Assembly (NCBI RefSeq): GCF_000280055.1
Contig: NZ_ALAB01000028.1
Coordinates: forward strand, 62,001-126,000
DNA length: 64,000 nt
Direction of reading: 5' to 3'
Origin: Alishewanella aestuarii B11
GTDB lineage: Bacteria; Pseudomonadota; Gammaproteobacteria; Enterobacterales; Alteromonadaceae
Shown: positions 31,016-47,264 of the stretch, in pieces
Position numbering within the stretch: position 1 is the stretch's first letter
Layout: each line of letters begins with the position of its first letter
Notes under the pieces: model-generated
Told to the model about the DNA's origin: nothing
The model's input: only the letters and a program-made list of their open reading frames with translations
Database searches by the model: none
Position numbers and translations under genes: made by a program

Positions 31016-31070
31016 GAATGCGCCCGTGCTCTGCTACACTTAAACCTTGGGTGCGCCGGGAGTGTGGCAG

Positions 31071-31718
31071 ATGCAGCTGACAGGTAAGGTAGTATTCTGG
31101 CAGGATAAAAAGGGCTTCGGCTTTTTGCTGTGTCAGCAAACTGAGCAGAAGCTGTTTTTTCATATCCGGGATTTTACCGACAGTAAAAGCCGCCCGGCTG
31201 AAGGTGATGAGCTGCAGTTTAGTATCGGCACCGATAAACAGGGCCGGCCTATTGCCACTCAGCTGAGCATCCTAAGCGCCAACCCGGCGGCCCGGCAACA
31301 CCCTTTACCACGGCTGAGCAGCGTTGATTTGGATTATACCCAGGATGTGGCGCTGTATTTTCGCGCCGCCTTTTTGATGCTGGTGATTATTGCGCTGCTG
31401 TTCGGTACCCTGCCCTACCTGTTACCTATCTTATATCTGGAAGCCAGCCTCTTTACCTACTGGTTGTATCAGGCCGATAAAAATGCCGCTGTGGCCCGGC
31501 AAACCCAACGCCTGCCGGAAGAAAGTCTGCAAATGTTTAGTCTGATTGGCGGCTGGCCCGGCGCGCTGGTGGCGCAAAAAAAACTGGCGCATAAGCGCAG
31601 TAAAGCGTTATTTCAGCGGGAGTTCTGGTTAGTGGTACTGGGTAACTGCCTGTTACTGTTATGGCTGATGTCGCAACATGGCCAGCAGTTTTTAAGCCGG
31701 CTGGCCTTATTCAGTTAG
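31071..31718 (+). CDS. Cold-shock-domain plus DUF1294 membrane protein
   Basis: A 215-residue protein: an N-terminal CSD-like domain (residues 1-65, GKVVFWQDKKGFGFLLCQQTEQKLFFHIRDF is its RNP-like core, split here) and a C-terminal DUF1294 region with membrane spans (LMLVIIALLFGTLPYLLPIL, FWLVVLGNCLLLLWLM) and the DUF1294 signature FSLIGGWPGALVAQKKLAHK. ATG 31071 follows GGGAG; a longer frame starts 8 codons earlier. It may couple RNA binding to the membrane, but the role is unknown. Confidence 0.85.
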   Translation: MQLTGKVVFWQDKKGFGFLLCQQTEQKLFFHIRDFTDSKSRPAEGDELQFSIGTDKQGRPIATQLSILSANPAARQHPLPRLSSVDLDYTQDVALYFRAAFLMLVIIALLFGTLPYLLPILYLEASLFTYWLYQADKNAAVARQTQRLPEESLQMFSLIGGWPGALVAQKKLAHKRSKALFQREFWLVVLGNCLLLLWLMSQHGQQFLSRLALFS

Positions 31719-31721
31719 CTG

Positions 31722-32906
31722 CTACACCTTAAAAATCCAGCCGCGACGATAGCAGTAAAGCATACCGATATAAGACAACAGCAAAAAGCAGATGGCGTAG
31801 GCTAACGAGCCGTTATAGTCACCAAACAGTGGCTGAAAAGCACTGCGGTACAGCCAGTTACCCAGCGTGGTGCCGACAACTGGTACCATCGATAACACCC
31901 GCGCCGCCACCCCGGCCAGCATAAAGAATAAAATGGCATTAACACCAAATACCAGCAGCGGCGCCGTCCAGAGCCGGTAGCGCTTCATTTCCGTTAACCA
32001 CAGAAACAGCGCCAGCATTAACGCAGTGAAACCGCTACTTAGCAGCACAAAGGTCGGTGTCCACAGCATTTTGTTAATCGGCAAGGCCGGATGCGCCAGC
32101 TCGGCGATCCAAACCGCCGCCAGACCGGATAGCAACAGCACCCGCAGCTTAAATGCCAGCTCCGCCTGACTCTGCAGCAGCTGCGCCATTAATACCCCGC
32201 TTAAACAGCTGGCAATCGCTGGCAGGGTGCTCAAAATGCCCTCAGGATCGAAGGCAAAGGGCGTGGCGCTACGAAAATACACATGATTTGGCCCCAGCAG
32301 CTGATGATCAAGCCAGGCCGCCAGATTGTTACCGTGCTCCCACAAACCAACAAAGGTATGGCCGTAGTTATCGCGGTAGGGCACAAACTGCATCAGCAAA
32401 AAATATAACAGGCATAACCCGCTTAACCACAGAATGCGGCCGCGGGTCCCGCTGTACAGCACAATCACTAAAGTACAAAAATAGACAATACCAATGCGTT
32501 GTAATACACCGGACCAGCGCACTGTCAGCAGTTTCTGTTGCAGATAGCTGTAATTGGGGTCACGGAAATTATAGTAAAACAGCACCAGAAACAGCCCCAA
32601 CAGATACAGCTTTAGTGCCCGGATGGCGCCCTGGCGGATCAGCTCCGCTTTGGGTAGCAGCTGCCGGCCAGCCAGGCTGTAGGGGATCGCCATCCCCACC
32701 ATTACCAGAAAAGCCGGGAAAATCAGATCGGTGGGCGTCCAGCCATGCCACTCGGCATGTAACAACGGCGGGTAGACATACTGCCAGCTGCCCGGATTAT
32801 TCACCAGTATCATCGCCAGGATCGCCAGCCCGCGCAGCGCATCCAGCGCCAGCATGCGGTTGGCCGGTTGCTGGGTTAAGATCTGCTGACAGTGTCGCAA
32901 TAGCAT
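31722..32906 (-). CDS. nagX: NagX-like membrane acyltransferase (DUF5009/HGSNAT family)
   Basis: A 394-residue polytopic membrane protein (10-11 spans). The N-terminal RMLALDALRGLAILAMILVNNPGSW and HAEWHGWTPTDLIFPAFLVMVG segments are the family signature, shared with heparan-alpha-glucosaminide N-acetyltransferase. NagX lies in chitin/GlcNAc loci of Shewanella and relatives and is thought to act on amino sugars, though its reaction is not settled. It follows the GH3 gene by a single base and is part of the amino-sugar locus. Confidence 0.82.
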   Translation of the reverse strand: MLLRHCQQILTQQPANRMLALDALRGLAILAMILVNNPGSWQYVYPPLLHAEWHGWTPTDLIFPAFLVMVGMAIPYSLAGRQLLPKAELIRQGAIRALKLYLLGLFLVLFYYNFRDPNYSYLQQKLLTVRWSGVLQRIGIVYFCTLVIVLYSGTRGRILWLSGLCLLYFLLMQFVPYRDNYGHTFVGLWEHGNNLAAWLDHQLLGPNHVYFRSATPFAFDPEGILSTLPAIASCLSGVLMAQLLQSQAELAFKLRVLLLSGLAAVWIAELAHPALPINKMLWTPTFVLLSSGFTALMLALFLWLTEMKRYRLWTAPLLVFGVNAILFFMLAGVAARVLSMVPVVGTTLGNWLYRSAFQPLFGDYNGSLAYAICFLLLSYIGMLYCYRRGWIFKV

Positions 32907-32907
32907 C

Positions 32908-34776
32908 TCAGTTTTCCGGTTGCGCCACCAGCGTCACCGGTAAGCGGCCGGTTGCTTTACTCTGACCTAACAACACCTCGGCTAATGCCTGATACACCGG
33001 GCTAACCCAGTTGCCTGCGTCATCCTGCCAGCCATGATAGGCATAGGTTGCCAGTGTCCGCTCGGCATAGGGGGCATACAGGCTGATCTCATAAGGCGAG
33101 CGCAGACTGACAAAGGTCTGCGGTTTTTTCAGCGCCGCACCGTACTGCAGCAGTTGTAAAAAATACTGCTGCTGTTGTTGATAAGCCTCGCCCAGATTGC
33201 GAATGCCGGATAAATCATCCATGCCACCGATCTCCGCCAGCGATTGCATCGGTGAAATAAAGCCCGCGATCACCTGATCGGCGGCGGCAATTTGCTGCTT
33301 CGCCTGATCCAAATTCAGCCGTTGCAGGCTAATCAGCTCAATGTTACCGGCATTGGGAGCGAGCTGCTTAAGGTAATTTTTCAGCAAGGTGCCCTTGCTC
33401 AGATCCGGCATCAACAGCACTGTGGTTTTATTAGTTAAATTCAGCGGCAAGCTGGATTCGCCTTTCACCACGGTCACGGCCGCCCGCGCCAATGCCAGTT
33501 CACTGGCCCGGTGTAACGGATTAGCCAGCACAGTGCGGGCCAAACGGGCATCCGGCCTGGCCTGGCTTTGCAGCGGCTGCTTGGCGGCCACTATCCGCTG
33601 ATAGGAGGCTTGCAGTTCGCGCTGCGATAACTTGCCGCTTTGTACCGCCGCCTCCAGCTCGTCAAGTAACGCCGCCAGATTGGCCAGCTCCGCCGGGCTT
33701 TGCAGCTTTACCGGCATCAGGGCAATATCCGCCCCGGCTGCAAAGGTTTCAATCACCGCCTGTGGCACCGTAAAGAAATGGCTGATCCCGGCCATATCCA
33801 GCGCATCGGTCACAATCAGGCCCTGATAATTCAGCTGTTCACGCAGTACGCCGGTCAGGATGCTGCGCGACAACGTTGCCGGCTTAATCATCTGCTCGCC
33901 GTTTTTGCTGCTAAAAGTACTGCTATCCAGCGCCGGGAACTGGATATGCGCGGTCATAATCATCGCCGGCGCAGCTTCTTTGATAATCTGGGCAAAAGGC
34001 AGTAAGTCGACGCGGGCGATCTGCTCTTTACTGTGATCGACCCGCGGTAAACCGAGATGACTGTCGACATGGGTATCGCCGTGACCGGGGAAATGTTTTA
34101 GTGATACCAGCAAGCCTTTTTGCTGCATGGCTTTGGTCATGGCGCTGCCCAGCACCGCGACCTTATGCGGCTCTTCACCAAAGGAGCGCACATTGATTAC
34201 CGGGTTCTGTGGATTCACGTTGACATCAACAGTGGGCGCAAAGTTAACGTTAATGCCCAGGCTAAGCAATTCCGTGGCCAGGATCTGCCCAACCTCAGTG
34301 GCAAAGCGGTTGCCATGCTGGGCAAAGGTTGCGCCTATCGCCATATTGCCACTAAAGGAGGTGGATTGTTGCCGTGGTAAGCGGGCTACCCGCCCTCCTT
34401 CCTGATCAATTCCAATAAATAACGGCAAAGCGCCGGCTTTAGCGGCAGCCTGCTGTAAATCCAGATTCAGTTTAACGATTTGCTCCGGATCCTGCAGATT
34501 CTCGGCAAACAGGATCACCCCGCCGATATGATGTTGGGTGATCAGCTCTGCCAACGCTGGCGGTAACTGGGTTAGCGGAGTGCGACAGGCACCGGGTGCC
34601 ACCGGCTGCTCGCAATAATAACGCAGGTCCAGCATTAATTTCTGGCCCAGCATCTGCCGCACTGGCGGCGTTTTTTGTTTGGCCGCGGCCTCTGTCAGAC
34701 TACTGGCGCCAAGACTACAAATCATCATTACACTCCCCAGCCATTTACCTAAGCCAGCTTTGCTTACTACCGCCAC
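32908..34776 (-). CDS. nagZ: Exported GH3 beta-N-acetylhexosaminidase (two-domain NagZ type)
   Basis: A 622-residue exported protein with a signal peptide (cleavage near TEA-AA, about 30). The GH3 TIM barrel (about 40-400) carries FIGIDQEGGRVARLPR, the His-dyad loop KHFPGHGDTHVDSHLGLP, and the nucleophile Asp in IVTDALDMAGI. A second domain (about 410-622) follows, as in Bacillus NagZ (YbbD), unlike the single-domain cytoplasmic E. coli NagZ. It should release GlcNAc from peptidoglycan fragments outside the cytoplasm. GTG start with AGGGGG eight bases upstream. It is divergent from the symporter gene. Confidence 0.88.
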   Translation of the reverse strand: MAVVSKAGLGKWLGSVMMICSLGASSLTEAAAKQKTPPVRQMLGQKLMLDLRYYCEQPVAPGACRTPLTQLPPALAELITQHHIGGVILFAENLQDPEQIVKLNLDLQQAAAKAGALPLFIGIDQEGGRVARLPRQQSTSFSGNMAIGATFAQHGNRFATEVGQILATELLSLGINVNFAPTVDVNVNPQNPVINVRSFGEEPHKVAVLGSAMTKAMQQKGLLVSLKHFPGHGDTHVDSHLGLPRVDHSKEQIARVDLLPFAQIIKEAAPAMIMTAHIQFPALDSSTFSSKNGEQMIKPATLSRSILTGVLREQLNYQGLIVTDALDMAGISHFFTVPQAVIETFAAGADIALMPVKLQSPAELANLAALLDELEAAVQSGKLSQRELQASYQRIVAAKQPLQSQARPDARLARTVLANPLHRASELALARAAVTVVKGESSLPLNLTNKTTVLLMPDLSKGTLLKNYLKQLAPNAGNIELISLQRLNLDQAKQQIAAADQVIAGFISPMQSLAEIGGMDDLSGIRNLGEAYQQQQQYFLQLLQYGAALKKPQTFVSLRSPYEISLYAPYAERTLATYAYHGWQDDAGNWVSPVYQALAEVLLGQSKATGRLPVTLVAQPEN

Positions 34777-34798
34777 AGTTGTGCCCCCTGTGTAGAAA

Positions 34799-34815
34799 GT
34801 TGAACGTCGTCCAAC
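34799..34815. promoter_or_regulatory. Near-perfect palindrome between divergent amino-sugar operons
   Basis: GTTGAACG-T-CGTCCAAC, symmetric except for one position pair and centred near CG, as LacI-family operators often are. It lies between the GH3 start (34776) and the symporter start (34947), where both divergent promoters must be. Confidence 0.45.
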
Positions 34816-34851
34816 ATAATTTATTCATGAATTTTTCGCAAACACGAATAG

Positions 34852-34882
34852 TTTACACTGTTCATCGCTTAGCAGTTATGCT
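34852..34882 (+). promoter_or_regulatory. Candidate sigma-70 promoter for the symporter operon
   Basis: TTTACA (34852-34857) matches TTGACA at 5 of 6 positions; TATGCT at 34877-34882 is a weak -10, giving a 19-base spacer (18 if TTATGC is used). Confidence 0.3.
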
Positions 34883-34946
34883 TTACTGCTGCTTAAAAAC
34901 TGCCCCTCAGCTGACGGGGCCCAGTAAAACCACGGACTTGCCGCTT

Positions 34947-36542
34947 ATGCAGCTCACCTTAGTAGATTGGCTGGTCTTTTGCAGCTATTTTTTTGTGCTC
35001 GCCCTGCTTGCCTGGTGGGTTAATCAAAAGCGGGCGCAAAATAGCAGCGATTACTTTCTGGGTGCCAACACCATGCCCGCTGCCCTGGTGGCCATTTCAG
35101 TGCTGGCGACCTCACAGTCTGCCGCAACCTTTTTGGGCGGCCCGGATCTGGGCTTTCGCGGCAACCTGAGTTATCTGGCCTCGAATATCGGCGCCGTGCT
35201 GGCGGCATTCTTTGTGATGCGCTTTCTGATCCCGCGCTATTACGCCCTGAAAGTCACCACCGTCTATGAGTTGCTGGAACAGCGCTTTAGTGCCAGTGCC
35301 AAAAGTCATGCCGGTCAGATGTACTTATTCGGCCGGGTCTTTGCCAGCGGTGCCCGCTTATTTATGGCGGCGCTGGCGGTATCTATGCTGCTATTTAACC
35401 ATATCGACGCCAGTGGTGTAATGGTCTCGGTGGCGCTGCTGGCTGGCATTGGCCTGCTGTGTACCATGGCGGGTGGTATCCGTTCGGTGATCTATACCGA
35501 TGCGCTGCAATGTTTGGTCTATGTTACTGCTGCGCTGGTGGTGCTGGTATATCTGTACAGCAGTTTAAGCCTGCCCTGGCCGGTATTACTGGAGGCCCTG
35601 CGTCATCCGCTGGAGCAGGACGGTTCGAAATTATTGCTGTTGGATTTTTCGGTCGATTTTAGCAGTAGTGGCGTCTTTAATATCTGGTCGGCACTGACTG
35701 GCTTTGTGCTGCTGAATATTGCCGCCTTTGGTTTGGATCAGGATATGACGCAGCGGGTGCTGACCTGCAAAACCCCGCAGCAAGGTGCTAAGGCGCTGCT
35801 TTCTTCTGCATTGCTGGTGATCCCGGTGATGCTGGTCTTTATCTTAATTGGCTTTTTGCTGTATATCTTTTATCAGCGCGCCGATCTGCATCAGGGCAGC
35901 GCCCTGTTAGCCGATAGCTTTCAGGGCGAGAAGGTTACGGTCTTTATGTACTATGTGCTGAACGAACTGCCCTCCGGCCTGCGCGGTCTGGTCGTAGTGG
36001 GCGTGATAGCAGCAGCACTGTCGACCATTACCTCGGGCCTGAACTCAATGGCCTCGGTACTGGTGGCGGATCTTTATGCTCCCTGGTGGCGCAAACGGCA
36101 AAGTGCTGGTATTGCACAGCAAAGCGCTGGCAGTGAGCGGCATCTGGTGCGGGCCGGGCAGCTGGCAATGTTGCTCACTGCCCTGGCGCTGTCACTGATG
36201 GCGGTGCTGTGTTACTACTGGCAACAATATTCCGATATGCCGCTGCTGGCCTTTGCGTTAAGCGTGATGGTGTTTTCCTACAGCGGTTTACTTGGCGTGT
36301 TTTTTACCGCGCTCTTTACCCGTCGCGGCAATAGCCGTTCGGTAACTGCGGCGCTGCTAACCGGCTTTGGCGTGACCTTGGTGCTACAACCTTATGTGTT
36401 GCAGCAAATCAGCCCAACGCTGGCCGTGCTGGATCTCGGCTTTACCTGGCAACTCTGCCTCGGTAGTCTGGTCGCCTTTTTAGTTTGTGTCAGTGGTTCG
36501 CCCGCCAAAGTGGCGGCGGATGCGCTGACAACCTCCCGTTAA
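34947..36542 (+). CDS. SSS-family sodium:solute symporter, probable MurNAc/amino-sugar transporter
   Basis: A 531-residue polytopic protein (13-14 spans) of the sodium/solute symporter family: first span LVFCSYFFVLALLAWWV, then SSDYFLGANTMPAALVAISVLATSQSAATFLGG, the canonical SSS N-terminus, and GVIAAALSTITSGLNSMASVLVAD in the Na-binding region. It is the first gene of a run of four with kinase, MurQ and NamZ, which points to MurNAc or GlcNAc as substrate; an SSS transporter (MurT) plays this role in Tannerella forsythia. ATG 34947 fits the family start; the upstream in-frame extension is not typical. Confidence 0.82.
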   Translation: MQLTLVDWLVFCSYFFVLALLAWWVNQKRAQNSSDYFLGANTMPAALVAISVLATSQSAATFLGGPDLGFRGNLSYLASNIGAVLAAFFVMRFLIPRYYALKVTTVYELLEQRFSASAKSHAGQMYLFGRVFASGARLFMAALAVSMLLFNHIDASGVMVSVALLAGIGLLCTMAGGIRSVIYTDALQCLVYVTAALVVLVYLYSSLSLPWPVLLEALRHPLEQDGSKLLLLDFSVDFSSSGVFNIWSALTGFVLLNIAAFGLDQDMTQRVLTCKTPQQGAKALLSSALLVIPVMLVFILIGFLLYIFYQRADLHQGSALLADSFQGEKVTVFMYYVLNELPSGLRGLVVVGVIAAALSTITSGLNSMASVLVADLYAPWWRKRQSAGIAQQSAGSERHLVRAGQLAMLLTALALSLMAVLCYYWQQYSDMPLLAFALSVMVFSYSGLLGVFFTALFTRRGNSRSVTAALLTGFGVTLVLQPYVLQQISPTLAVLDLGFTWQLCLGSLVAFLVCVSGSPAKVAADALTTSR

Positions 36543-36553
36543 GAGGAATCTGT

Positions 36554-37423
36554 ATGTCGTATCTTCTGGCCATCGATGGCGGTGGTACCAAAACAGCCGG
36601 TGTGCTGCAAGCTGTGGTTAGTGGTCAGCGCTGGCAAGCCGTCAGTGGCCCGGCTCAATTGACCAATGATTTACAACAAGCGCTGATTAATGTGCGCTCA
36701 CTGGTACAGGATCTGTGTCGTCAGGCCGGCATCAGCCCGGCCGGGATCACCGCGGTAATTGGTCTGGCCGGTGCCGGCAATCCGGCATTGCATAAAGCCT
36801 TTAGTCAACAACTGGCCTTACCCTTTGCCAGATGGCAACTCACCACCGATGCCCGAACCTCATTGTATGGCGCTAATCAGGGCAAACCTGTGGCGGTGGT
36901 CGCTATCGGTACCGGTTCAGTAGCGATGCGCTTAGAAGCCGATGGCACCGAGCTGCAGGTAGGTGGCTGGGGTTTTAATATCGGTGACGAGGGCGGCGGC
37001 GCCTGGCTGGGCCGGGAATTGGTGCGGGAACTGTTATGGCAACTGGATTGGCAAAAGCCGTTCACTCCACTGTTCTCGGCAGTGGCCGCGCGCTGCGGCA
37101 AAGATGCTGCCAGCCTGCTGCCCTGGTTGAAACAAGCAACGGCCAGTGACTTTGCTGCCCTGGCGCCGCTGGTATACCAATATGCCAGTGAGCCGGCAGC
37201 CCAACGCCTGCAGGCCCGTCAGGCCGATGCCATTAATCAGCTGGCGTTATGCTGTCTGGCCGGCCAGGACTTGCCCCTGGTGTTGCTGGGCGGGCTGGCA
37301 ACCGCCTGCGCGGCGCAGCTGTCACCCTTATTACAACAGCGGTTACAAGCCGCCAGCGGCGATGCCCTGACCGGCGGTCTGGTGCTGGCACAGGCCTTAG
37401 CAACTGCACCTTCGGAGGCCTGA
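36554..37423 (+). CDS. BadF/BcrA-type amino-sugar kinase, probable MurNAc/GlcNAc kinase (MurK-like)
   Basis: A 289-residue ASKHA kinase with phosphate-1 loop LLAIDGGGTKTAG, GLAGAGNPALHKAF, VAIGTGSVAMRLE (phosphate-2) and GDEGGGAWLGRELVRELL. The family includes eukaryotic GlcNAc kinase and bacterial MurK, which phosphorylates MurNAc at O6. Placed between the symporter (11-base gap) and murQ (stop and start overlap as TGATG), it likely supplies MurNAc-6-P. The exact sugar specificity cannot be told from sequence. RBS AAGAGGAA upstream of ATG 36554. Confidence 0.83.
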   Translation: MSYLLAIDGGGTKTAGVLQAVVSGQRWQAVSGPAQLTNDLQQALINVRSLVQDLCRQAGISPAGITAVIGLAGAGNPALHKAFSQQLALPFARWQLTTDARTSLYGANQGKPVAVVAIGTGSVAMRLEADGTELQVGGWGFNIGDEGGGAWLGRELVRELLWQLDWQKPFTPLFSAVAARCGKDAASLLPWLKQATASDFAALAPLVYQYASEPAAQRLQARQADAINQLALCCLAGQDLPLVLLGGLATACAAQLSPLLQQRLQAASGDALTGGLVLAQALATAPSEA

Positions 37424-38343
37424 TGAGTACCAGTACCTTGCTTGCCCAATTAGCCACAATGAGCACAGAAGCACGTAACACCGCAAGTCGGAACCTGGAT
37501 CAGCTCAGTAGCCTGCAGCTGGTTCAACTGATTAATCAGGCGGATCAACAAGTAGCCAACAGCATCACGCCGGCACTGCCGCAGATCGCTCAGGCGGTAG
37601 AACAGATAGTGCAGGCCTTTGCCAAAGGTGGCCGGCTGATTTATCTGGGGGCCGGCACCAGTGGCCGGCTCGGCATTCTGGATGCCGTTGAATGTCCGCC
37701 GACCTATAGCGTGCCAGACTCCCAGGTCATTGGCCTGATCGCCGGTGGCGCTAATGCCATCTATAAAGCGGTCGAAGGTGCCGAAGATAATCCGCAACTG
37801 GCGGAGCAGGATCTGCAGCAGATCGGCTTTCAGCCGCAGGATATTCTGGTTGGCATCGCCGCCAGTGGCCGCACACCCTATGTACTGGGCGGCCTGGCCT
37901 ACGCCCGCCGCTGTGGTGCAGTAACCGTTGCCATCAGTTGCAATGCCGGTGCGCCTATTCTGGCGGCCGCTGATATCGCGATCTGTGCCGAAGTCGGCCC
38001 GGAAGTGGTAACCGGCTCTACTCGGATGAAAGCCGGTAGCGCCCAGAAAATGATTTTAAATATGCTCAGCACCGCTGCTATGGTGTTAAGCGGCAAGGTG
38101 TATCAGAATTTGATGGTTGATCTGCATGCCAGTAATCAAAAACTGGTGGCGCGCGCCGTGCGCATTGTGATGCAGGCCACCGACTGCGATCAGCCAACTG
38201 CCGAGCAGGCACTGGCGCGTTGTGAACAGAGTGCTAAGCTGGCGATATTGCATTTACTCAGCGGCCAGCCGGTCGAGGCCTGTCGGGCACAACTGCTGGC
38301 AGAGGGAGGTTTTGTGCGTAAAGCTCTGGAGGCGCTGCAATGA
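37423..38343 (+). CDS. murQ: N-acetylmuramic acid 6-phosphate etherase MurQ
   Basis: A 306-residue SIS-domain lyase (E. coli 298). Motifs: NRNLDQLSS-like SRNLDQLSSLQLV, RLIYLGAGTSGRLGILDAVECPPTYSV (Glu of the EC/PPTY segment), GCIAASGRTPY-like VGIAASGRTPYVLGG, and ICAEVGPEVVTGSTRMKAGSAQK. It cleaves D-lactate from MurNAc-6-P giving GlcNAc-6-P. Start ATG 37423 overlaps the kinase stop; its 3' end overlaps namZ by 4 bases. Confidence 0.96.
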   Translation: MSTSTLLAQLATMSTEARNTASRNLDQLSSLQLVQLINQADQQVANSITPALPQIAQAVEQIVQAFAKGGRLIYLGAGTSGRLGILDAVECPPTYSVPDSQVIGLIAGGANAIYKAVEGAEDNPQLAEQDLQQIGFQPQDILVGIAASGRTPYVLGGLAYARRCGAVTVAISCNAGAPILAAADIAICAEVGPEVVTGSTRMKAGSAQKMILNMLSTAAMVLSGKVYQNLMVDLHASNQKLVARAVRIVMQATDCDQPTAEQALARCEQSAKLAILHLLSGQPVEACRAQLLAEGGFVRKALEALQ

Positions 38344-39506
38344 AACAGCTGCTATTGGTCCTGTTATGGTTAGTGCTATGTAGTGGCCAGCCGGCGCTGG
38401 CTGACAGTGCAGCCATTCGCACCGGTGCCGAGCAACCGGAGCGCTATTTGCCGCTGCTGGCCGGTAAAAAAGTGGGCTTACTGGTTAATCAAACCTCCAG
38501 AGTCGGCGAACAGCATCTGGTCGATTTCCTGTTACAGCAACAAGTGCAGGTGGTCGGCATCTTTGCACCTGAACATGGTTTTCGCGGCGATTACGACGCC
38601 GGCGCCCGGGTCGGTGATAGCCGCGATCCCCGCACCGGCCTGCCGATCTGGTCAATGTATGGCGCCAGTAAAAAACCGGATCTGAGTTTACTGCAGCAAC
38701 TGGACCTGGTGATCTTTGATATTCAGGATGTCGGGGTGCGCTATTACACCTACATCAGCTCAATGCACTATATGATGGAGGCTGCCGCCGCTGCCGGGGT
38801 TGCGATGCTGATCCTGGACCGGCCAAACCCGAATGGTGCTTATCTGGATGGTCCGGTACTGGATCTAAAATTTCAGTCCTTTGTTGGCATGCACCCGATC
38901 CCGCTGTTACATGGCATGACGGTTGGCGAGCTGGCACTGATGATCAAAGGCGAGCAGTGGATCGCCAATGCGGAAAAGCTGCAGTTAACGGTGATCCCAA
39001 ATGCCAATTATCAGCGCGATCTGCCATACGAATTACCAATCCCACCCAGCCCGAATTTACCCAATGCCCAGGCGGTCCGGCTCTACCCTTCGCTGGGCTT
39101 TTTTGAAGCCACACCCCTGTCGGTCGGGCGCGGTACCCCCTTTCCGTTTCAGGTGCTGGGTTATGATCAGTTTGCCAGCGACGAGTTTAGCTTTGTCCCG
39201 GTCAGCACGCCGGGTGCAGCATTAAATCCGCCGTTAAAAGATAAAAGAGTCTATGGTGAAGATCTGCGTCAGGTCAGCACAGACGGCTTAACCCTGAGCT
39301 ATCTGATGCGCTGGCAACAGCTGTTTGCCAGCCACGCCAAAGTGATGTTCACGGCGCCGGACTTTATGGATAAGCTGGCCGGCACCGATCAGTTGCGGTT
39401 ACAAATTGAACGTGGTGACAGTGAGCCACAGATCCGTGATAGCTGGCAAAGTGCGTTGCAGCAGTTCAGGCTGCAACGCCAACCGTATTTACTCTATCCG
39501 GAATGA
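38340..39506 (+). CDS. namZ: Exported exo-beta-N-acetylmuramidase NamZ-like (DUF1343, GH171)
   Basis: A 388-residue exported protein: signal peptide (MKQLLLVLLWLVLCSG to ALA-DS, residue 22), then DUF1343: GKKVGLLVNQTSRVG, FAPEHGFRGDYDAG, SMYGASKKPDLS, DLVIFDIQDVGVRYYTYISS, DRPNPNGAYLDGPVLD and FFEATPLSVGRGTPFPF. The family was identified as exo-beta-N-acetylmuramidase (NamZ, GH171), releasing MurNAc from non-reducing ends of peptidoglycan glycans; together with the GH3 enzyme it would degrade the sugar backbone. It overlaps murQ by 4 bases and abuts the convergent lipoprotein gene. Confidence 0.9.
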   Translation: MKQLLLVLLWLVLCSGQPALADSAAIRTGAEQPERYLPLLAGKKVGLLVNQTSRVGEQHLVDFLLQQQVQVVGIFAPEHGFRGDYDAGARVGDSRDPRTGLPIWSMYGASKKPDLSLLQQLDLVIFDIQDVGVRYYTYISSMHYMMEAAAAAGVAMLILDRPNPNGAYLDGPVLDLKFQSFVGMHPIPLLHGMTVGELALMIKGEQWIANAEKLQLTVIPNANYQRDLPYELPIPPSPNLPNAQAVRLYPSLGFFEATPLSVGRGTPFPFQVLGYDQFASDEFSFVPVSTPGAALNPPLKDKRVYGEDLRQVSTDGLTLSYLMRWQQLFASHAKVMFTAPDFMDKLAGTDQLRLQIERGDSEPQIRDSWQSALQQFRLQRQPYLLYPE

Positions 39507-40373: not shown

Positions 40374-41780
40374 CTAAGTCCCCAGAGGATTCTTTAATTC
40401 CAGGTTGGCTAAGTGTAGCAGCTGGCCGTTTAACAGTACCTGAACCACCTCACCCTGGCTATTCAGTAGTAAAAAGGTCGCACCTTGCCGCAACTGTGGC
40501 GAACTTTGTGTTGGCCGCAGCGGATTAACAAGTACCGGTAACCGGGTTTGTCGCTGCAGCAATTTGGCGTCACCGCTAAAGTGGGTATAACCTTGCCGTA
40601 GTAGTTGCTGATAACGCTGATCATCCAACAGTAATGGCTCGCTCAGCGGATAGGCACGGCCTTGCTGATAACGCAGCCCAGTCACGTCGAACAGATGGTA
40701 GGCGCCATAGCCACTCAGATCGCCCAGCTCATGGATCCGGGCATAGCTATCGCCTTCGGTATGAAAATTCACGCCGATATCCAGCACCGCCTCAGTGTCC
40801 GCAACCCGGACCTGCAGATTTTTCAGGATCAAATCTTTTAAGCCACCACTGCGGTTAAAGGGGATCGCTTCATAATCACTGAGTGGGGCCGCACGATAAC
40901 TGCCGCTGGCAATCGCATTTAACCAGGCCACATACAACTGGAAATTCAGCCGCCGTGCCACCTGGCGATTATCGTCGGCACGATGGCCTCCGGCCTCGAC
41001 TAACACCGTACTGATGCCCATACCGGCAAAGGTATCGCCAAAGGAGCGTGGCGACCAGGTATCGTTATAGCGGCCCAGATGTTCCGGGATCTGAGTATCC
41101 AACCAGGGTTTGATATGCGCAATCAGCTGCATCGCACGCCGGCGGCTGTCGTTGATGTCGCGTGCTGCATTATAGGCCGGTGCCAGCAGTGAAATGGTTG
41201 CCGGGTTCGGGGCCTCACCTGCGGCATGAAAGCGGTTCTGATCATGCAAGTTAAAGCCATAATCTGGCTGGATTTGCCGCGCCAGCTGCATCAGCAGGCG
41301 GCCTTCCGGACTCTGTAGCGCAAGCGCATCACGGTTAATATCTATGCCCTGGGCATTAACCCGGCTGTTCCGGGCAGCACCATCAGGGTTCAGCATGGGC
41401 ACCAGATACAGGGTGATTTCGGAAAACCACTGCTCGCGCCAGGCCTGTTGCTCCGGTGCCAGCGTATAGCGCAATAAATCAAATAAGGCAGCGGTTGCGG
41501 TATGTTCATCGCCATGCATCTGCGACCAGGCCAGCACGCGTTTTTTGCCTTGCCCGAGCTTAAGTAAATAGATTGGCCGGTTTTCCACCGAGCGGCCCAG
41601 CTCGGTCACCGTTACTGCCGGATCGCTGGCATACTGCTTAATTAAAGGTTCAATATCAGCCAGTTGCAATCTGGGCTTATCGAAGCCCGGTTGCAGGTAA
41701 GGTTGATAATGTTCAAGTGTCGTTGCCTGTGCCATCGTCATGCCAGCCACCCAGAGTAAGATCAGTAACCATTTATTCAT
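40374..41780 (-). CDS. M14 family zinc carboxypeptidase, exported
   Basis: A 468-residue exported protein with signal peptide (cleavage near AQA-TT, residue 20). M14 zinc site: HGDE in SQMHGDEHTATAALF, His in GFNLHDQN, and catalytic Glu in VLVEAGGH. A C-terminal beta domain (about 340-468) follows. It should remove C-terminal residues from peptides in the periplasm or outside; a peptidoglycan stem-peptide role is possible but not shown. ATG 41780 is chosen for the signal peptide and AAGGGG upstream. Confidence 0.88.
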   Translation of the reverse strand: MNKWLLILLWVAGMTMAQATTLEHYQPYLQPGFDKPRLQLADIEPLIKQYASDPAVTVTELGRSVENRPIYLLKLGQGKKRVLAWSQMHGDEHTATAALFDLLRYTLAPEQQAWREQWFSEITLYLVPMLNPDGAARNSRVNAQGIDINRDALALQSPEGRLLMQLARQIQPDYGFNLHDQNRFHAAGEAPNPATISLLAPAYNAARDINDSRRRAMQLIAHIKPWLDTQIPEHLGRYNDTWSPRSFGDTFAGMGISTVLVEAGGHRADDNRQVARRLNFQLYVAWLNAIASGSYRAAPLSDYEAIPFNRSGGLKDLILKNLQVRVADTEAVLDIGVNFHTEGDSYARIHELGDLSGYGAYHLFDVTGLRYQQGRAYPLSEPLLLDDQRYQQLLRQGYTHFSGDAKLLQRQTRLPVLVNPLRPTQSSPQLRQGATFLLLNSQGEVVQVLLNGQLLHLANLELKNPLGT

Positions 41781-42005: not shown

Positions 42006-43397
42006 GTGTCAGACTGGCTTACCCTGTTACCGGCAATCGTCGCTATTGCCGTGGTGTTGTGGCGCAAGGAAGTGATCCTGGCGCTGTTGTTGTCGCTTTG
42101 TACTGCGGAATTGCTGATCTTTATCCAGCAAGGCCAGGGACTGGGCGCCAGTTTACTGTTAAACGGCAGTATCCAGACCCTGGAGCGGATTGTCGAGGTT
42201 ACGGCGGATGCCGGTAATGCCCGTATTCTGATGTTCTCGTTACTGGTCGGCAGCTTACTGGCCTATTTACGCTATTCCGGTGGGGTAACGGCGACGGTGG
42301 AGCTGTTGATCCGCAAAGGGGTAGCCCGCACCGGACGCCAGGCCGGTTTGCTAACCTTTGGCATCAGCTTCTTTACCTTTATTGAATCGAATTTAAGCTC
42401 GCTGACCAAGGGGATCAGTACCCGTGGCCTGTTTGATAAATTTGGCATGAGCCGGGCCCGGCTGGCTTATATTATCGACAGTACCAGCTCGCCAATTTGT
42501 ATCATTATTTTGCTCAATGGCTGGGGTGCCTATGTGCTGGGGCTGCTTAGCACCTATGAATTATCGGTGCCGGCTGTGTCTGTGCTGCTGGGCACTATTC
42601 CACTGAACTTTTATGCGCTGTTTACGCTGGCAGTGGTGCTGTACACCATTATTAGCGGTAAGGTGTATGGCCCACTGCGCCGCGCTGAGCAGCAGCAAAA
42701 CCGGCTGGCCGATCATACCGAAATTGACACCCCCGCCAGTCACCCGTCTTATATGTTGGTGCCGTTATTAACACTGGTGTTTTCGATGGTCGCCTTTATG
42801 CTGCTAACCGGTAACGGTAATCTGGTGCAGGGTTCAGGTTCCAAATCGGTGCTGTATGCAACTGTGTTGGCGTGTCTGGTGGCATATAGCATGATGCTGT
42901 TTAGCCGGCGCTTTCAGCACCAGCAGTTGGTGAATATCGGTTTTAAAGGCATCTCAGAGCTATTACCTGTGGTTACCATAGTACTGCTGTCGATGGCGCT
43001 GGGTACCAGTTTAAAGATGTTAGGTACCGGCGCCGTGATCGCTGGCATGGTTGATCAGAGTGTGCCGCATTTTCTGATCCCGGCATTGCTGTTCCTGGCC
43101 GGTTCACTGATCTCCGTCACTACCGGCACCAGCTGGGGGACCTTTGCGATCCTGGTACCTATTGGTATGCCAATGGTGACTTTGCTGGAGTTACCACCCC
43201 AGTTGGTATTAGCGGCCATTTTAAGTGGCGGCATTTTCGGCGATCACTGCTCACCAATCTCAGACAGTACCGCAGTCAGCTCGGTTGCTGCCGGCTGTGA
43301 TTTGCTGGAGCACGTAAAAACCCAGCTGCCTTATGCGCTGTTTTGTGGCCTGCTGGCCCTGCTCGCCTTTACCCTGACTGGCTGGATGATGATTTAA
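42006..43397 (+). CDS. NhaC-family Na+/H+ antiporter
   Basis: A 463-residue protein with about 11 membrane spans. The NhaC signature IFGDHCSPISDSTAVSS is near residue 410, with FIESNLSSLTKG and IDSTSSPICIIILLNGWG in the first half. It probably exchanges Na+ or an organic acid for H+. GTG 42006 follows GGAGG by 8 bases. It is monocistronic, with M14 divergent upstream and TetR downstream. Confidence 0.9.
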   Translation: MSDWLTLLPAIVAIAVVLWRKEVILALLLSLCTAELLIFIQQGQGLGASLLLNGSIQTLERIVEVTADAGNARILMFSLLVGSLLAYLRYSGGVTATVELLIRKGVARTGRQAGLLTFGISFFTFIESNLSSLTKGISTRGLFDKFGMSRARLAYIIDSTSSPICIIILLNGWGAYVLGLLSTYELSVPAVSVLLGTIPLNFYALFTLAVVLYTIISGKVYGPLRRAEQQQNRLADHTEIDTPASHPSYMLVPLLTLVFSMVAFMLLTGNGNLVQGSGSKSVLYATVLACLVAYSMMLFSRRFQHQQLVNIGFKGISELLPVVTIVLLSMALGTSLKMLGTGAVIAGMVDQSVPHFLIPALLFLAGSLISVTTGTSWGTFAILVPIGMPMVTLLELPPQLVLAAILSGGIFGDHCSPISDSTAVSSVAAGCDLLEHVKTQLPYALFCGLLALLAFTLTGWMMI

Positions 43398-43483
43398 GCC
43401 GTGCCGCGCCCCGGTATTAGTGTCCGCCACGACAACGTGCTACACTGCCGGGGCCGTTGTTAAAAAGTCAAGAAGTCCTGTCT

Positions 43484-44101
43484 ATGGCCCGTAAAACCAA
43501 AGCTGAAGCCGAAGCCACCCGCGAACTGATTCTGGATGCGGCTGAACAGTTGTTTTTTCAGCATGGCGTATCCCGTACCACGCTGGAAAAAATTGCCGCC
43601 GCTGCCGGCGTCACCCGCGGTGCTATTTACTGGCATTTTGAGAATAAGTCAGCACTGTTCAGCGCCATGCTGGAGCGGATCCGGCTGCCCTTTCAGCAAA
43701 TGCTCGGCCAGCTCGATATGCTGCAGCAGGGCGATCCGCTGGCACAACTGCGCGATTTTCTGATCCGGTCGTTAACGTTGATCAGCAGCAGTGAACGGCA
43801 CTTCCGGGTCTTATCGATCGTATTCTTACGCTGTGAATATATTGATGAGCTAAATCCGGCGGTGTCGCGCCAGGAGGAGCTGGATAAAACAGCCAATGCC
43901 ATTATCAGCCGCGCCTTACAACGTGCCCGGAGTGCCGGCATGTTGCAAGCCGATGTCGATCCGGATCTGGCGGCCTGTGCCATTCATGCCTATCTGGGTG
44001 GTCTGATCCGTAAATATCTGCTGAAACCCGATTTCTGCGATCTGAAGCAGGCTGCGGCCTTTATCGATCTGATGCTAAACGGCATAAAAAAGCCAGTCTG
44101 A
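43484..44101 (+). CDS. TetR-family repressor, probable regulator of the RND pump
   Basis: A 205-residue TetR/AcrR-type repressor. The helix-turn-helix (residues 12-58) reads AAEQLFFQHGVSRTTLEKIAAAAGVTRGAIYWHFENKSAL, then a TetR_C-like ligand domain. It resembles AcrR and TtgR, which bind the acrAB promoter. The gene is convergent with the pump operon, and an AcrR-like palindrome is found upstream of the pump (48464-48481). ATG 43484 fits the family start. Its last codons lie inside the operon terminator. Confidence 0.9.
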   Translation: MARKTKAEAEATRELILDAAEQLFFQHGVSRTTLEKIAAAAGVTRGAIYWHFENKSALFSAMLERIRLPFQQMLGQLDMLQQGDPLAQLRDFLIRSLTLISSSERHFRVLSIVFLRCEYIDELNPAVSRQEELDKTANAIISRALQRARSAGMLQADVDPDLAACAIHAYLGGLIRKYLLKPDFCDLKQAAAFIDLMLNGIKKPV

Positions 44102-44134
44102 AAGCTGGGAATCCTTCCCGCTAAACAGACTGGC
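44086..44134 (-). terminator. Terminator of the RND operon, overlapping the TetR 3' end
   Basis: GCCAGTCTG / CAGACTGGC (44092-44100, 44126-44134) encloses a second stem GGGAA/TTCCC. On the minus strand it is followed by CTTTTTT. The stem overlaps the TetR stop codon (44099-44101), so it could end both transcripts. Confidence 0.82.
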
Positions 44135-44165
44135 AAAGGTACAAACCTTTAAGTCGTGACACGCT

Positions 44166-47100
44166 TTACGCGAGACGCGGCTTAGCCGCAAAGAAGCGCA
44201 TCACCACGTAGTAAAATATCGGCACCAGAAACACCGCCAACACAGTCGCAGAGATCATGCCGCCGAGTACACCGGTACCAATCGCATTGCGACTGGCAGA
44301 GCCGGCGCCACTACTGATCACCAACGGCAGTACCCCTAATGAGAACGCCATTGACGTCATAATAATGGGCCTTAAGCGTAAGCGGACAGCTTCGATAATG
44401 GCGGCTTTTAGTTCACGGCCCTGTTGCTGCAGCTCGCGGGCAAACTCGACAATCAGAATGGCGTTTTTCGAGGCCAGCCCCATAGTGGTTAATAACCCGA
44501 CCTGAAAATAGACATCATTGCCCAGACCACGCAAATAGGCGGCACAGAGCGCGCCGAAAATCCCCAGCGGTACCACTAAGATCACGGCAAAAGGCACCGA
44601 CCAACTCTCATACAGCGCCGCCAGACAGAGGAAGACCACCAGGATCGACAGTGCATATAAGGCCGGTGCCTGCGAGCCAGACAGCTTTTCCTGATACGAG
44701 GTTGCAGTCCATTCAAAGTCGATACCGGCCGGTAATTGCCGCACCAGTTGCGCCATGGTCGCCATCGCATCGCCTGAGCTGACGCCAGGCGCCGGCTCCC
44801 CCTGAATTTCCATGGCGCTGACCCCGTTATAGCGTTCCAGACGCTGCGGACCATACTCCCAACGGCTGCTGGCAAAGGAGCTAAAGTTCACCATCTGGCC
44901 CTGCTTATTGCGGACATACCATTTGTTCAGATCTTCCGGCGTCATCCGGAATTCCGGCTCAGCCTGTACATAGACCTTTTTCACCCGGCCGCGGTCGACG
45001 AAATCATTGATATAGGCCGAGCCCCAGCCAATGGCCAACGTTTGGTTAATTTCGCTTAGCGATACACCCAACGCCTGAGCTTTTAGCTGATCCACGTCAA
45101 TTTGTAACTGGGCCGCATCTTCCATACCATTTGGCCGCACCTGCATTAACGTCGGCTCTTTTGCCGCCATGCCCAATAACTGATTACGGGCATTAAGCAG
45201 CGCTTCATGGCCAAGGCCACCGCGGTCCTGTAAATACAGATTAAAACCGGTCGCCCGTCCTAACTCTGAGATCGGTGGTAAGTTAAAGGCAAACACCTGC
45301 GCCTCTTTAATGGTGCTGAAAAAACCATAGGCTCGCCCTATTACGGCCTGCACACTATCTTCCGGCCCACGTTCAGACCAGTCTTTTAACCGTACGAAGG
45401 CTAAACCAACGTTCTGCCCCCGGCCGGCGAAACTAAAGCCGCTGACGGTAAACGCAGAAATAACGGCCGGATCCTGCTGATAGTGTTGGCTGATTTTATC
45501 CATTACCGCCTCGGTGCGCTCCAGACTGGCACCTGTTGGTAACTGCACTATGCTAAGAAAAATGCCCTGATCTTCTTCCGGCAAAAAGGAGGTCGGCAAG
45601 CGTACAAACATTACCGCCATAATGGCCACTATGGCGCCATATACCAGCATCGAGCGGCCGGGCCGCTGTAACATGCCGGCCACGCCGCGCTGATAGCCTT
45701 TGTTACTGCGTTCAAAGTTGCGGTTAAACCAACCGAAGAACCCCTTATTGGGCGGTAAGTGGCCAGCTTTGAGCATGGTGGCGCACAGCGCCGGGGTAAA
45801 GATCAACGCTACCAGTACCGACAGCGCCATCGCCGTAACGATAGTAATCGAGAACTGCTTATAGATAGCGCCGGTGGCGCCACCAAAGAACGCCATCGGC
45901 ACAAAGACTGCCGACAATACCAGACCAATGCCAATCAACGCGCCGGTGATCTGCCCCATCGATTTACGGGTTGCTTCCTCCGGTGGCAGGCCTTCTTCAG
46001 TCATTACCCGCTCAACGTTTTCCACCACCACGATTGCATCATCAACCAGCAAGCCGATGGCCAACACCATACCAAACATGGTCAGGGTATTAATCGAAAA
46101 GCCAAAGGCGGCCATCACGCCAAAGGTGCCGAGTAACACCACCGGCACTGCCAGGGTTGGGATCAGGGTCGCGCGGAAATTCTGCAGGAACAGGTACATC
46201 ACCAAAAACACCAGAATCACTGCTTCAATCAGCGTTTGCACCACTGAGGTAATGGAAATTTCGACAAAGGGTGTGGTGTCATACGGAATTTCGGTGACCA
46301 GGCCAGCCGGAAAGTAAGGTTTTAACTCTTCCAACCGCTGCCGCACTGCTGCTGCCGTATCCAGAGCATTAGCGCCGGTGGCCAGCTCAATCGCAATGCC
46401 GGTGGCTTCCTGACCATTAAAGCGGCCCATAACGGCGTAGTTCTCGCCACCCAGCTCAACCCGGGCCACATCAGCCAGTTTCACGGTAGAGCCATCAGCA
46501 TTCACCCGCAGCAGAATATCGGCAAATTCTTCGGCTGAGGTTAAGCGGGTTTGCGCCAGTATTGGGGCATTAAACTGCTGGCCAGCTAAAGCCGGTGCGC
46601 CGCCTAACTGGCCGGCAGTGACCTGATTATTTTGCACCCTCACCGCCGCTGTAACATCAGCCGGTGTCAGATTAAACTGGTTTAACTTAGCGGCATCCAG
46701 CCAGATCCGCATCGCATACTGACTACCAAATACTGTGACATTACCGACGCCGGGGGTACGGCTGAGCGGATCCCGTACGTTAGCGACCACATAGTCAGCA
46801 ATATCATCGCGGTTCAGACTACCATCGGCCGAGATAAAGGCCACCACCATCAAAAAAGCGCCGTTGGACTTGGCTACCCGCACCCCTTGTTGCTGCACTT
46901 CCTGCGGCAATAATGGAATGGCCTGCTGTAGCTTGTTCTGTACCTGGACCTGCGCAATATCGGCGTTAGTGCCAGTTTCAAAAGTCAGGGTTAAACTGAT
47001 ATTACCGGACGAATCACTTTGCGCCGACATATACATCAGGTTATCCAGGCCGGTCATCGCCTGCTCGATCACCTGAGTTACTGCATCTTCCGCGGTTTGC

Positions 47101-47261
47101 GCTGAGGCGCCCGGATAGCTGGCGGAAATGGTTACCGCCGGTGGCGCGATCCGAGGATACTGCTCTACCGGCAGCTGCATTATCGATAAGGCACCACCCA
47201 GCATAATTACAATGGCGATAACCCAGGCAAAGATCGGCCGGCTGATAAAGAAATTTGCCAT
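44166..47261 (-). CDS. RND efflux pump permease, HAE1 (AcrB-like) family
   Basis: A 1031-residue inner-membrane proton-driven transporter. The AcrB-type N-terminus [19 protein letters not shown] is intact, as are the proton-relay region [23 protein letters not shown] (about 405-430, Asp-Asp) and [14 protein letters not shown] near residue 935. It pumps hydrophobic drugs or bile-like compounds out together with the adaptor encoded 3 bases upstream; the outer-membrane channel must be supplied from elsewhere. Confidence 0.95.
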
Positions 47262-47264
47262 TGG

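What the first reader, a model, noticed from the sequence alone, without database searches (positions are those of the whole stretch)
31722..39506. PTS-independent N-acetylmuramic acid salvage locus with its own exo-muramidase
Two divergent gene blocks bring together an exported GH3 hexosaminidase and NagX-like protein (minus) and an SSS symporter, BadF-type kinase, MurQ and NamZ-type GH171 muramidase (plus, overlapping or nearly touching). Seen: gene order, signal peptides and family motifs. Known: NamZ releases MurNAc, MurQ makes GlcNAc-6-P, and an SSS transporter and kinase (MurT, MurK) serve Tannerella forsythia, whereas E. coli uses the PTS protein MurP. Inferred: a complete extracellular-to-cytoplasmic MurNAc route without a PTS in this gammaproteobacterium, joined by AnmK (8966) and AmpD (28900).
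Basis: partly seen in the sequence, partly recalled or inferred. Interest (0 to 1): 0.75.

Follow-up and report, generated by a model that had tools for sequence, protein, structure and literature searches.

The report
PTS-free peptidoglycan-sugar eating gene cluster
An Alishewanella bacterium carries a conserved set of six genes that very probably lets it cut cell-wall sugars from peptidoglycan, import them with a sodium-type transporter and turn them into ordinary sugar phosphate; a known kind of pathway built from a different set of parts, and still untested at the bench.

Summary
Window 31722-39506 holds NagX (-), exported GH3 (-), then SSS symporter, BadF-type kinase, MurQ and exported NamZ (+; the last three touch or overlap). 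The same six-gene order occurs in 17 of 17 named Alishewanella, Arsukibacterium and Rheinheimera-type loci. The own genome has no PTS EIIC match, one NagK-like kinase, this one, no ROK match, and a nagA locus without a kinase.

New evidence links the parts. In three other genera kinase and MurQ are one fused protein; 82 of 120 listed homologues of one fusion carry both domains. Thirty of 31 murQ-linked kinases form one clade apart from nagA-linked NagKs. The SSS stays beside murQ where NagX is missing, so the SSS is the better importer candidate.

Corrections: AnmK and AmpD are not shown to belong to the conserved block here; the family of T. forsythia MurT is described inconsistently in print; the kinase is nearer to NagK-like and Clostridium MurK than to Tannerella MurK and may also serve GlcNAc. 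Verdict: new variant of a known kind. No step is biochemically shown.

The parts
31722..32906 (-). NagX/HGSNAT-like membrane protein (394 aa); proposed to N-acetylate glucosamine-type sugars at the periplasmic face
   Evidence: Pfam HGSNAT_cat 26.5 bits; NCBIfam NagX 140.5 bits, below its 480 cut-off; HAxWHGW motif in 17 of 17 named loci; only NagX-family match in the genome; function from PMC9007349 passages
32908..34776 (-). Exported two-part GH3 beta-N-acetylglucosaminidase of the B. subtilis NagZ (YbbD) type; start uncertain (GTG 34776, or ATG 34728/34725)
   Evidence: Best PDB sequence match 3bmx YbbD, 330 bits over residues 39-616; KHFPGHGDTxVDSH motif shared; N-terminal hydrophobic stretch by eye
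34777..34946 (.). Divergent promoter region; conserved ATTCAT...(A)TGAATA/TTTAC block upstream of the SSS in Rheinheimera and, less exactly, Alishewanella: candidate operator or promoter
   Evidence: Alignment of window plus 17 loci; not tested further
34947..36542 (+). SSS family sodium:solute symporter (531 aa), proposed inner-membrane MurNAc importer
   Evidence: SSF 85 bits; best PDB match 5nv9, 111 bits; in the block of 17 of 17 named loci and beside murQ in 17 of 20 unnamed loci
36554..37423 (+). BadF/NagK-like sugar kinase (289 aa), proposed MurNAc (and GlcNAc) 6-kinase
   Evidence: MurQ-linked clade 100/100; fused to MurQ in L056-L058; AlphaFold model pLDDT 88, nearest folds 1zc6, 2e2q, 8zo3
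37423..38343 (+). MurQ, N-acetylmuramic acid 6-phosphate etherase (306 aa)
   Evidence: TIGR00274 405.6 bits; HI0754 1nri 333 bits
38340..39506 (+). NamZ, exported exo-beta-N-acetylmuramidase (GH171 type, 388 aa)
   Evidence: NamZ_N and NamZ_C; 4jja 362 bits and 4k05 183 bits over the whole mature chain; only NamZ in the genome
40374..41780 (-). Exported M14 carboxypeptidase; possible accessory for murein peptides (lead)
   Evidence: Peptidase_M14 57 bits, weak MpaA hit 26 bits under its 157 cut-off; beside the block in 10 of 17 named loci and in L061, L070, L074
42006..43397 (+). NhaC-type Na+/H+ antiporter family protein; possible accessory, substrate unknown (lead)
   Evidence: Na_H_antiporter 137 bits; near the block in 10 of 17 named loci and in L056, L058, L072, L073

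Best explanation
A PTS-free pathway for eating peptidoglycan sugars. Outside the inner membrane, GH3 (NagZ/YbbD type) removes non-reducing-end GlcNAc and NamZ removes MurNAc from peptidoglycan glycan fragments; NagX may re-acetylate de-acetylated amino sugars. The SSS symporter imports free MurNAc with Na+. The BadF-type kinase makes MurNAc-6-phosphate with ATP. MurQ splits it into GlcNAc-6-phosphate and D-lactate, and NagA/NagB elsewhere in the genome feed glycolysis. Because no other NagK-type or ROK kinase was found in the genome, the kinase probably also phosphorylates GlcNAc brought in by the NagP-like carrier. Shown: gene content, order, conservation, fusion elsewhere, absence of EIIC. 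Inferred from families and context: all enzyme activities, the SSS substrate, Na+ coupling.
For: Families of all six genes. Order kept in 17 of 17 named loci. No PTS_EIIC in the genome. Kinase and MurQ in one ORF in L056, L057, L058 (L057 translated), and 82 of the 120 listed homologues carry both domains. MurQ-linked kinase clade, 30 of 31. SSS kept beside murQ in 17 of 20 unnamed loci, NagX in 2 of 20. Of 18 genomes with an SSS-murQ link seen in the fetched DNA, 13 have no EIIC, while 25 of 25 other murQ genomes (SSS not checked) do. Related loci add alanine racemase, MR_MLE-type enzymes, NlpC/P60 and RpiR-type regulators, all fitting murein use. nagA, NagP-like and nagB present without a kinase. 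Growth of strain ACAM 620 on MurNAc was compared among mutants in PMC9537276 (passages).
Against: No activity was measured. The loop over the sugar site in the kinase model has pLDDT under 50 (residues 139-145), so specificity cannot be read from it. In L070, L072 and L074 the SSS-murQ-namZ block has no adjacent kinase; in L061 the only kinase is 29% identical and a few kb away on the other strand; in L071 and L073 neither SSS nor kinase is adjacent. Five SSS-kinase-AnmK-murQ genomes (family f21) also have 8-13 EIIC matches. The 13-versus-25 contrast is confounded by phylogeny: 11 of the 13 are in the window's own family. The tryptophan at GGWGF is not a specific mark: of 15 kinases with W elsewhere in the class, 11 have a nagA match within about 1.5 kb and 5 a murQ match.
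Confidence: 0.82

Rival explanations
1. The NagX-like protein, not the SSS, is the MurNAc importer (as a distant relative of Tannerella MurT), and the SSS carries GlcNAc or another sugar.
For: PMC9007349 states that NagX is distantly related to TfMurT (passages); NagX is in the block of 17 of 17 named relatives.
Against: NagX is missing from 18 of 20 unnamed related stretches while the SSS is kept in 17 of 20. In five bacteria NagX is involved in glucosamine use, and PMC9007349 argues for acetyl transfer, not transport. HAxWHGW kept in 17 of 17.
Confidence: 0.1
2. The kinase is primarily the genome's GlcNAc kinase; MurNAc-6-P for MurQ comes mainly from AnmK and internal recycling, and co-location is only for shared GlcNAc-6-P handling.
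For: Only NagK-like kinase in the genome, no ROK, nagA locus lacks a kinase; best matches are putative GlcNAc kinases; AnmK present; related kinases elsewhere in the class often sit beside nagA.
Against: Kinase fused to MurQ in other genera and in a murQ-linked clade separate from nagA-linked kinases of the same order; in G050, G068, G138, G172 and G261 separate, stronger NagK matches coexist with the murQ-linked one. A dual role is compatible with both.
Confidence: 0.2
3. The SSS imports a GlcNAc-derived acid such as GlcNAc1A (OngIT-like) or sialic acid, and the locus serves chitin or host glycans.
For: An SSS (OngIT) imports GlcNAc1A in strain ACAM 620 (PMC9537276 passages); the nearest solved SSS is 5nv9 (a sialic-acid symporter, recalled).
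Against: MurQ, NamZ and the kinase-MurQ fusion have no role in those routes; deleting ongIT made no difference to growth on MurNAc, so OngIT itself is not a MurNAc importer model.
Confidence: 0.06

Closest known systems
Tannerella forsythia murTKQ with NamZ1/NamZ2
   Same: PTS-free: transporter, ATP-dependent kinase, MurQ, exo-muramidases
   Different: Kinase here only 14% identical to Tf MurK in the structural alignment; the family of MurT is described inconsistently in print; NamZ1/NamZ2 known to me here only from a reference-list title
Bacillus subtilis murein-sugar operon (nagZ/ybbD, namZ/ybbC, murQ, murP; recalled, not looked up)
   Same: Same exported GH3 type (330 bits to YbbD), NamZ and MurQ together
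   Different: MurP PTS replaced by SSS plus kinase; no amidase and no MurR gene inside the six-gene block
Clostridium acetobutylicum MurK (dual MurNAc/GlcNAc kinase)
   Different: 20% identity; N, not T, before the catalytic D; context of the Clostridium gene not examined
Shewanella nag pathway (NagP, NagK, NagX)
   Same: PTS-free permease plus novel kinase, NagX present (PMC2996990 passages)
   Different: For GlcNAc, not MurNAc; NagK and NagX models match here only far below cut-off (128 of 370, 140 of 480 bits)

Membership tests
MurQ (N-acetylmuramic acid 6-phosphate etherase) | Passes the curated family model over full length | tested here: met
   TIGR00274 405.6 bits, cut-off 302
NamZ (GH171 exo-muramidase) | NamZ_N and NamZ_C over cut-off, exported | tested here: met
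   257 and 92 bits; signal stretch by eye only; no NCBIfam match
NamZ (GH171 exo-muramidase) | Releases MurNAc from non-reducing ends | not testable with these tools
   Needs enzyme assay
NagZ/YbbD-type exported GH3 | Full-length match to YbbD including the His-Asp motif | tested here: met
   330 bits over residues 39-616, KHFPGHGDTxVDSH; NCBIfam PRK05337 204.7 against cut-off 207, just missed
MurK-type MurNAc kinase | BadF/NagK fold kinase linked to murQ | tested here: met
   fusion elsewhere
MurK-type MurNAc kinase | Open sugar pocket where the lactyl group sits (Tf MurK S133-P134-L135, T94) | tested here: inconclusive
   T before the catalytic D as in human NagK and Tf MurK, GG-W as in human NagK and Clostridium MurK; neither is specific; model loop pLDDT under 50
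NagK_SO3507 (GlcNAc kinase equivalog) | Over NCBIfam cut-off | tested here: not met
   128 bits, cut-off 370
NagX_SO_3504 (equivalog) | Over NCBIfam cut-off | tested here: not met
   140.5 bits, cut-off 480; Pfam HGSNAT_cat is met
SSS sodium:solute symporter | SSF Pfam model over cut-off | tested here: met
   85 bits, cut-off 22.8; superfamily model TIGR00813 148 against 184, not reached
T. forsythia MurT | Sequence relation of SSS or NagX to TfMurT | not tested
   TfMurT sequence not obtained; papers disagree

The most novel reading that the evidence does not exclude
A distinct Gammaproteobacterial solution to MurNAc use: a sodium symporter of the SSS family dedicated to MurNAc, coupled to a NagK-like kinase that in several genera is fused to MurQ into one bifunctional MurNAc-to-GlcNAc-6-P enzyme, which with exported NamZ and GH3 allows PTS-less bacteria to feed on foreign peptidoglycan.
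Probability: 0.6. Interest if true: 0.6.

Novelty: new variant of a known kind. Interest (0 to 1): 0.48.

Why it matters
The known MurNAc import route of E. coli depends on the PTS protein MurP. If this holds, PTS-less relatives in the Gammaproteobacteria have a complete alternative, with a clear candidate for an SSS-type MurNAc importer and a naturally fused kinase-etherase. It makes directly testable how environmental bacteria take carbon and nitrogen from dead neighbours' cell walls, and gives better names to proteins that databases list only as 'etherase'.

Tried and rejected
A tryptophan rule for MurNAc kinases: W at GGWGF in 30 of 31 murQ-linked, 0 of 13 nagA-linked and 0 of 8 other kinases, but in a class-wide sample 15 of 22 kinase rows have W, and of those 15, 11 have a nagA match in the short stretch held (L097, L100, L101, L103, L107-L110, L112, L114, L118) against 5 with a murQ match (L098, L102, L103, L105, L110). 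Kept only as 'compatible', not diagnostic.

T94-type threonine before the catalytic D: T in 25 of 31 murQ-linked and 11 of 13 nagA-linked kinases, so useless as a discriminator.

Anabolic AmgK/MurU bypass: 8 APH-family matches at 7 places in the own genome. The surroundings of four (L126-L129) were read: by recalled gene names they look like srkA-dsbA, pnuC-thiamine kinase, fructosamine kinase and mtnK, with no sugar nucleotidyltransferase noticed beside them. Three places were not read, so absence of AmgK is likely but not shown.

L069 was counted as murQ-linked but falls far outside the clade (branch 7.2) and has GGRG; kept as the 1 of 31.

One search mixed several records in one file and then failed; its line is not used (done correctly). 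My guess that the 356-372 aa neighbours are AmgK or LacI was wrong: of seven scanned, six are alanine racemases and one is a mechanosensitive channel.
Full report
WHAT IS THERE. The window is G000:C28:62001-126000 of a 3.59 Mb genome in 43 contigs. The 16 window proteins found in L002 are 97-100% identical to Alishewanella jeotgali KCTC 22429, so I take it as an Alishewanella. Pfam and NCBIfam give NagX/HGSNAT-like, GH3, SSF symporter, BadF-type kinase, MurQ, and NamZ with both its domains. On the plus strand SSS, kinase, MurQ and NamZ lie 11, -1 and -4 bp apart; GH3 and NagX on the minus strand lie 1 bp apart; a 170 bp divergent region separates the two blocks.

CONSERVATION. One scan of named genomes with the kinase gave 18 loci. 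In 17 (L002-L018: Alishewanella, Arsukibacterium, Rheinheimera and one metagenome bin) all six genes are present in the same order and strands, 53-99% identical; the eighteenth (L019, an alphaproteobacterial bin, kinase 28% identical) has no match to any other window protein searched. Flanks vary. The aspartyl protease-NadC-cold-shock genes precede the block in the 3 Alishewanella and 2 Arsukibacterium loci; AmpD is seen in the 3 Alishewanella loci (in Arsukibacterium it would lie past the edge of the stretch) and none of these genes was found in the 12 other loci, one of which (L007) has almost no flank there. AnmK, also searched, hit none of the 17. M14 and NhaC-type genes follow the block in 10 of 17. 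So the six genes are the unit. AnmK of this genome lies about 21.5 kb from NagX.

PTS-FREE. The own genome has no PTS_EIIC match, against matches in 7 of 14 control genomes including E. coli and B. subtilis. It has one NagK-type match, this kinase, no ROK match (12 of 14 controls ring), one NagX, one NamZ and one NagA over cut-off. That nagA, on contig C11, sits beside a NagP-like MFS carrier and nagB, without a kinase (carrier and nagB named by eye, but the same carrier type sits beside nagA in 9 of the 20 comparison stretches). Hence the cassette kinase is the only candidate found for GlcNAc too, and a dual role is predicted.

THE WIDER ORDER. Of 295 genomes of the order, 27 have NamZ: 18 of 25 in the window's family and 9 of 270 elsewhere, one of these below the family cut-off. 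I fetched 20 murQ, kinase or namZ stretches, chosen because searches showed kinase and/or NamZ there, and 20 further stretches around other NagK-like kinases for comparison. In the first 20 (L055-L074) an SSS of the same type is beside murQ (or separated from it only by the kinase and AnmK) in 17 (not in L069, L071, L073), NagX is there in 2 (L055, L057), and a kinase is next to murQ or separated from it only by AnmK in 14. In L056, L057 and L058, three genera, kinase and MurQ are one ORF of 615-626 aa with both Pfam domain sets. A protein search with the L057 fusion lists the 120 best homologues; 82, counted by eye, carry the kinase domain plus MurQ-type domains at 600 aa or more, and 70 of these 82 align over at least 84% of the query, the other 12 only over the MurQ half. 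Source names include Thalassotalea, Psychrosphaera and Rheinheimera, and most printed names are 'N-acetylmuramic acid 6-phosphate etherase'. Fusion of an enzyme to the maker of its substrate is strong evidence that the kinase makes MurNAc-6-P. In five genomes of family f21 the order is SSS-kinase-AnmK-MurQ (L063-L067), and the one divergent regulator gene tested there (L063) is RpiR-type. Other loci contain RpiR-type regulators (2 further proteins tested), alanine racemases (6 of 7 candidates tested), MR_MLE enzymes, the family of Ala-Glu epimerases (3 proteins), and NlpC/P60 peptidases (2 proteins): the tool-kit for murein peptides. No regulator gene is in the window's six-gene block.

KINASE TREE. 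In a tree of 52 kinases (51 different), 30 of 31 murQ-linked ones form one clade (support 100/100) separate from 13 nagA-linked and 8 other kinases of the same order; the exception, L069, is a very long branch. Eighteen of the 31 come from the window's close kin. At the position next to the lactyl group in the published Tannerella MurK structure (PMC10465942, part 1 of section 8 and section 10 read; the correspondence worked out by me through human NagK) they have W in 30 of 31, against H in 10, Q in 2 and Y in 1 of 13 nagA-linked kinases. Human NagK and Clostridium MurK also have GGWG. But in a class-wide sample W is common (15 of 22 kinase rows), and 11 of these 15 have a nagA match close by against 5 with murQ, so it marks at most a permissive pocket, not MurNAc specificity.

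PTS CONTRAST. Of 46 genomes compared, 18 have an SSS-murQ link that I saw in the fetched stretches: 13 have no EIIC, 5 (all f21) have 8-13. Three more (G113, G193, G203) have namZ beside murQ but I did not look for the SSS; they have no EIIC. Of 25 other murQ genomes, not checked for an SSS, 25 have EIIC. In G158 and G210 an EIIC match lies right beside murQ and about 3 kb from namZ (coordinates): the PTS version of the same locus. Eleven of the 13 EIIC-free genomes belong to one family, so this is a pattern, not independent events.

NAGX OR SSS AS IMPORTER. PMC9007349 (passages) reports from fitness data in five bacteria that NagX is involved in glucosamine use, proposes that it acetylates periplasmic glucosamine, and remarks that NagX is distantly related to TfMurT. 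PMC5790795 (passages) places TfMurT in the sodium symporter superfamily in one passage and the major facilitator superfamily in another; PMC7670621 (passages) calls it a novel family. The original 2016 paper is not held. Here the SSS is the constant partner of murQ and NagX is not, so I take the SSS as the importer (about 0.8).

LITERATURE. Searches in the held library. Among the listings and the passages read, none describes this cassette, an SSS-type MurNAc importer in Gammaproteobacteria, or the kinase-MurQ fusion; no search was aimed at the fusion by name, and most subscription journals are not held, so this is weak evidence of absence. PMC9537276 (passages) reports that deleting another SSS gene (ongIT) in marine strain ACAM 620 (a Pseudoalteromonas, recalled) made no difference to growth on MurNAc, which suggests that the strain uses MurNAc, and that this SSS carries the acidic amino-sugar derivative GlcNAc1A.

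VERDICT. A real, conserved, PTS-free peptidoglycan-sugar salvage cassette; a new variant of a known kind, functionally parallel to murTKQ plus NamZ of Tannerella and to the B. subtilis murein operon (the latter recalled). Every activity remains inferred from family membership and context.

Noticed in passing
L056:6611-8491, L057:7790-9637, L058:7641-9494: Kinase and MurQ are fused in one ORF in three other genera; database names for such proteins are mostly just MurNAc-6-P etherase.
   Followed up: yes
L063-L067: Family f21 genomes carry SSS-kinase-AnmK-MurQ in one block, so AnmK has joined the operon there although these genomes also have PTS proteins.
   Followed up: partly
G158:C1:2391555-2396055 and G210:C1:1226596-1231099 (not fetched as loci): A PTS EIIC match lies beside murQ and near namZ: apparently the PTS version of the same salvage locus (coordinates).
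   Followed up: no
window 42006-43397: NhaC-type transporter recurs near murQ-namZ loci in several genera; MurQ releases D-lactate and some NhaC relatives exchange lactate (recalled), so a lactate or Na+ role is a guess.
   Followed up: no
window 40374-41780: Exported M14 carboxypeptidase beside NamZ, also near namZ in L061, L070, L074; possible murein peptide trimming.
   Followed up: no
window 34777-34946 and upstream regions of L003-L018: Conserved ATTCAT...ATGAATA/TTTAC block before the SSS gene in Rheinheimera, weaker in Alishewanella, different in Arsukibacterium; no regulator gene linked in the window.
   Followed up: partly
L070, L071, L072, L073, L074: murQ-namZ loci without an adjacent kinase, four of them (not L072) with alanine racemase next door; which kinase serves MurQ there is unknown.
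   Followed up: partly
window 43457-48395: TetR-type repressor, AcrB-type RND pump and membrane-fusion protein: an ordinary efflux set.
   Followed up: no
window 31047-31718: Cold-shock domain joined to a DUF1294 domain in one ORF, next to NagX.
   Followed up: no
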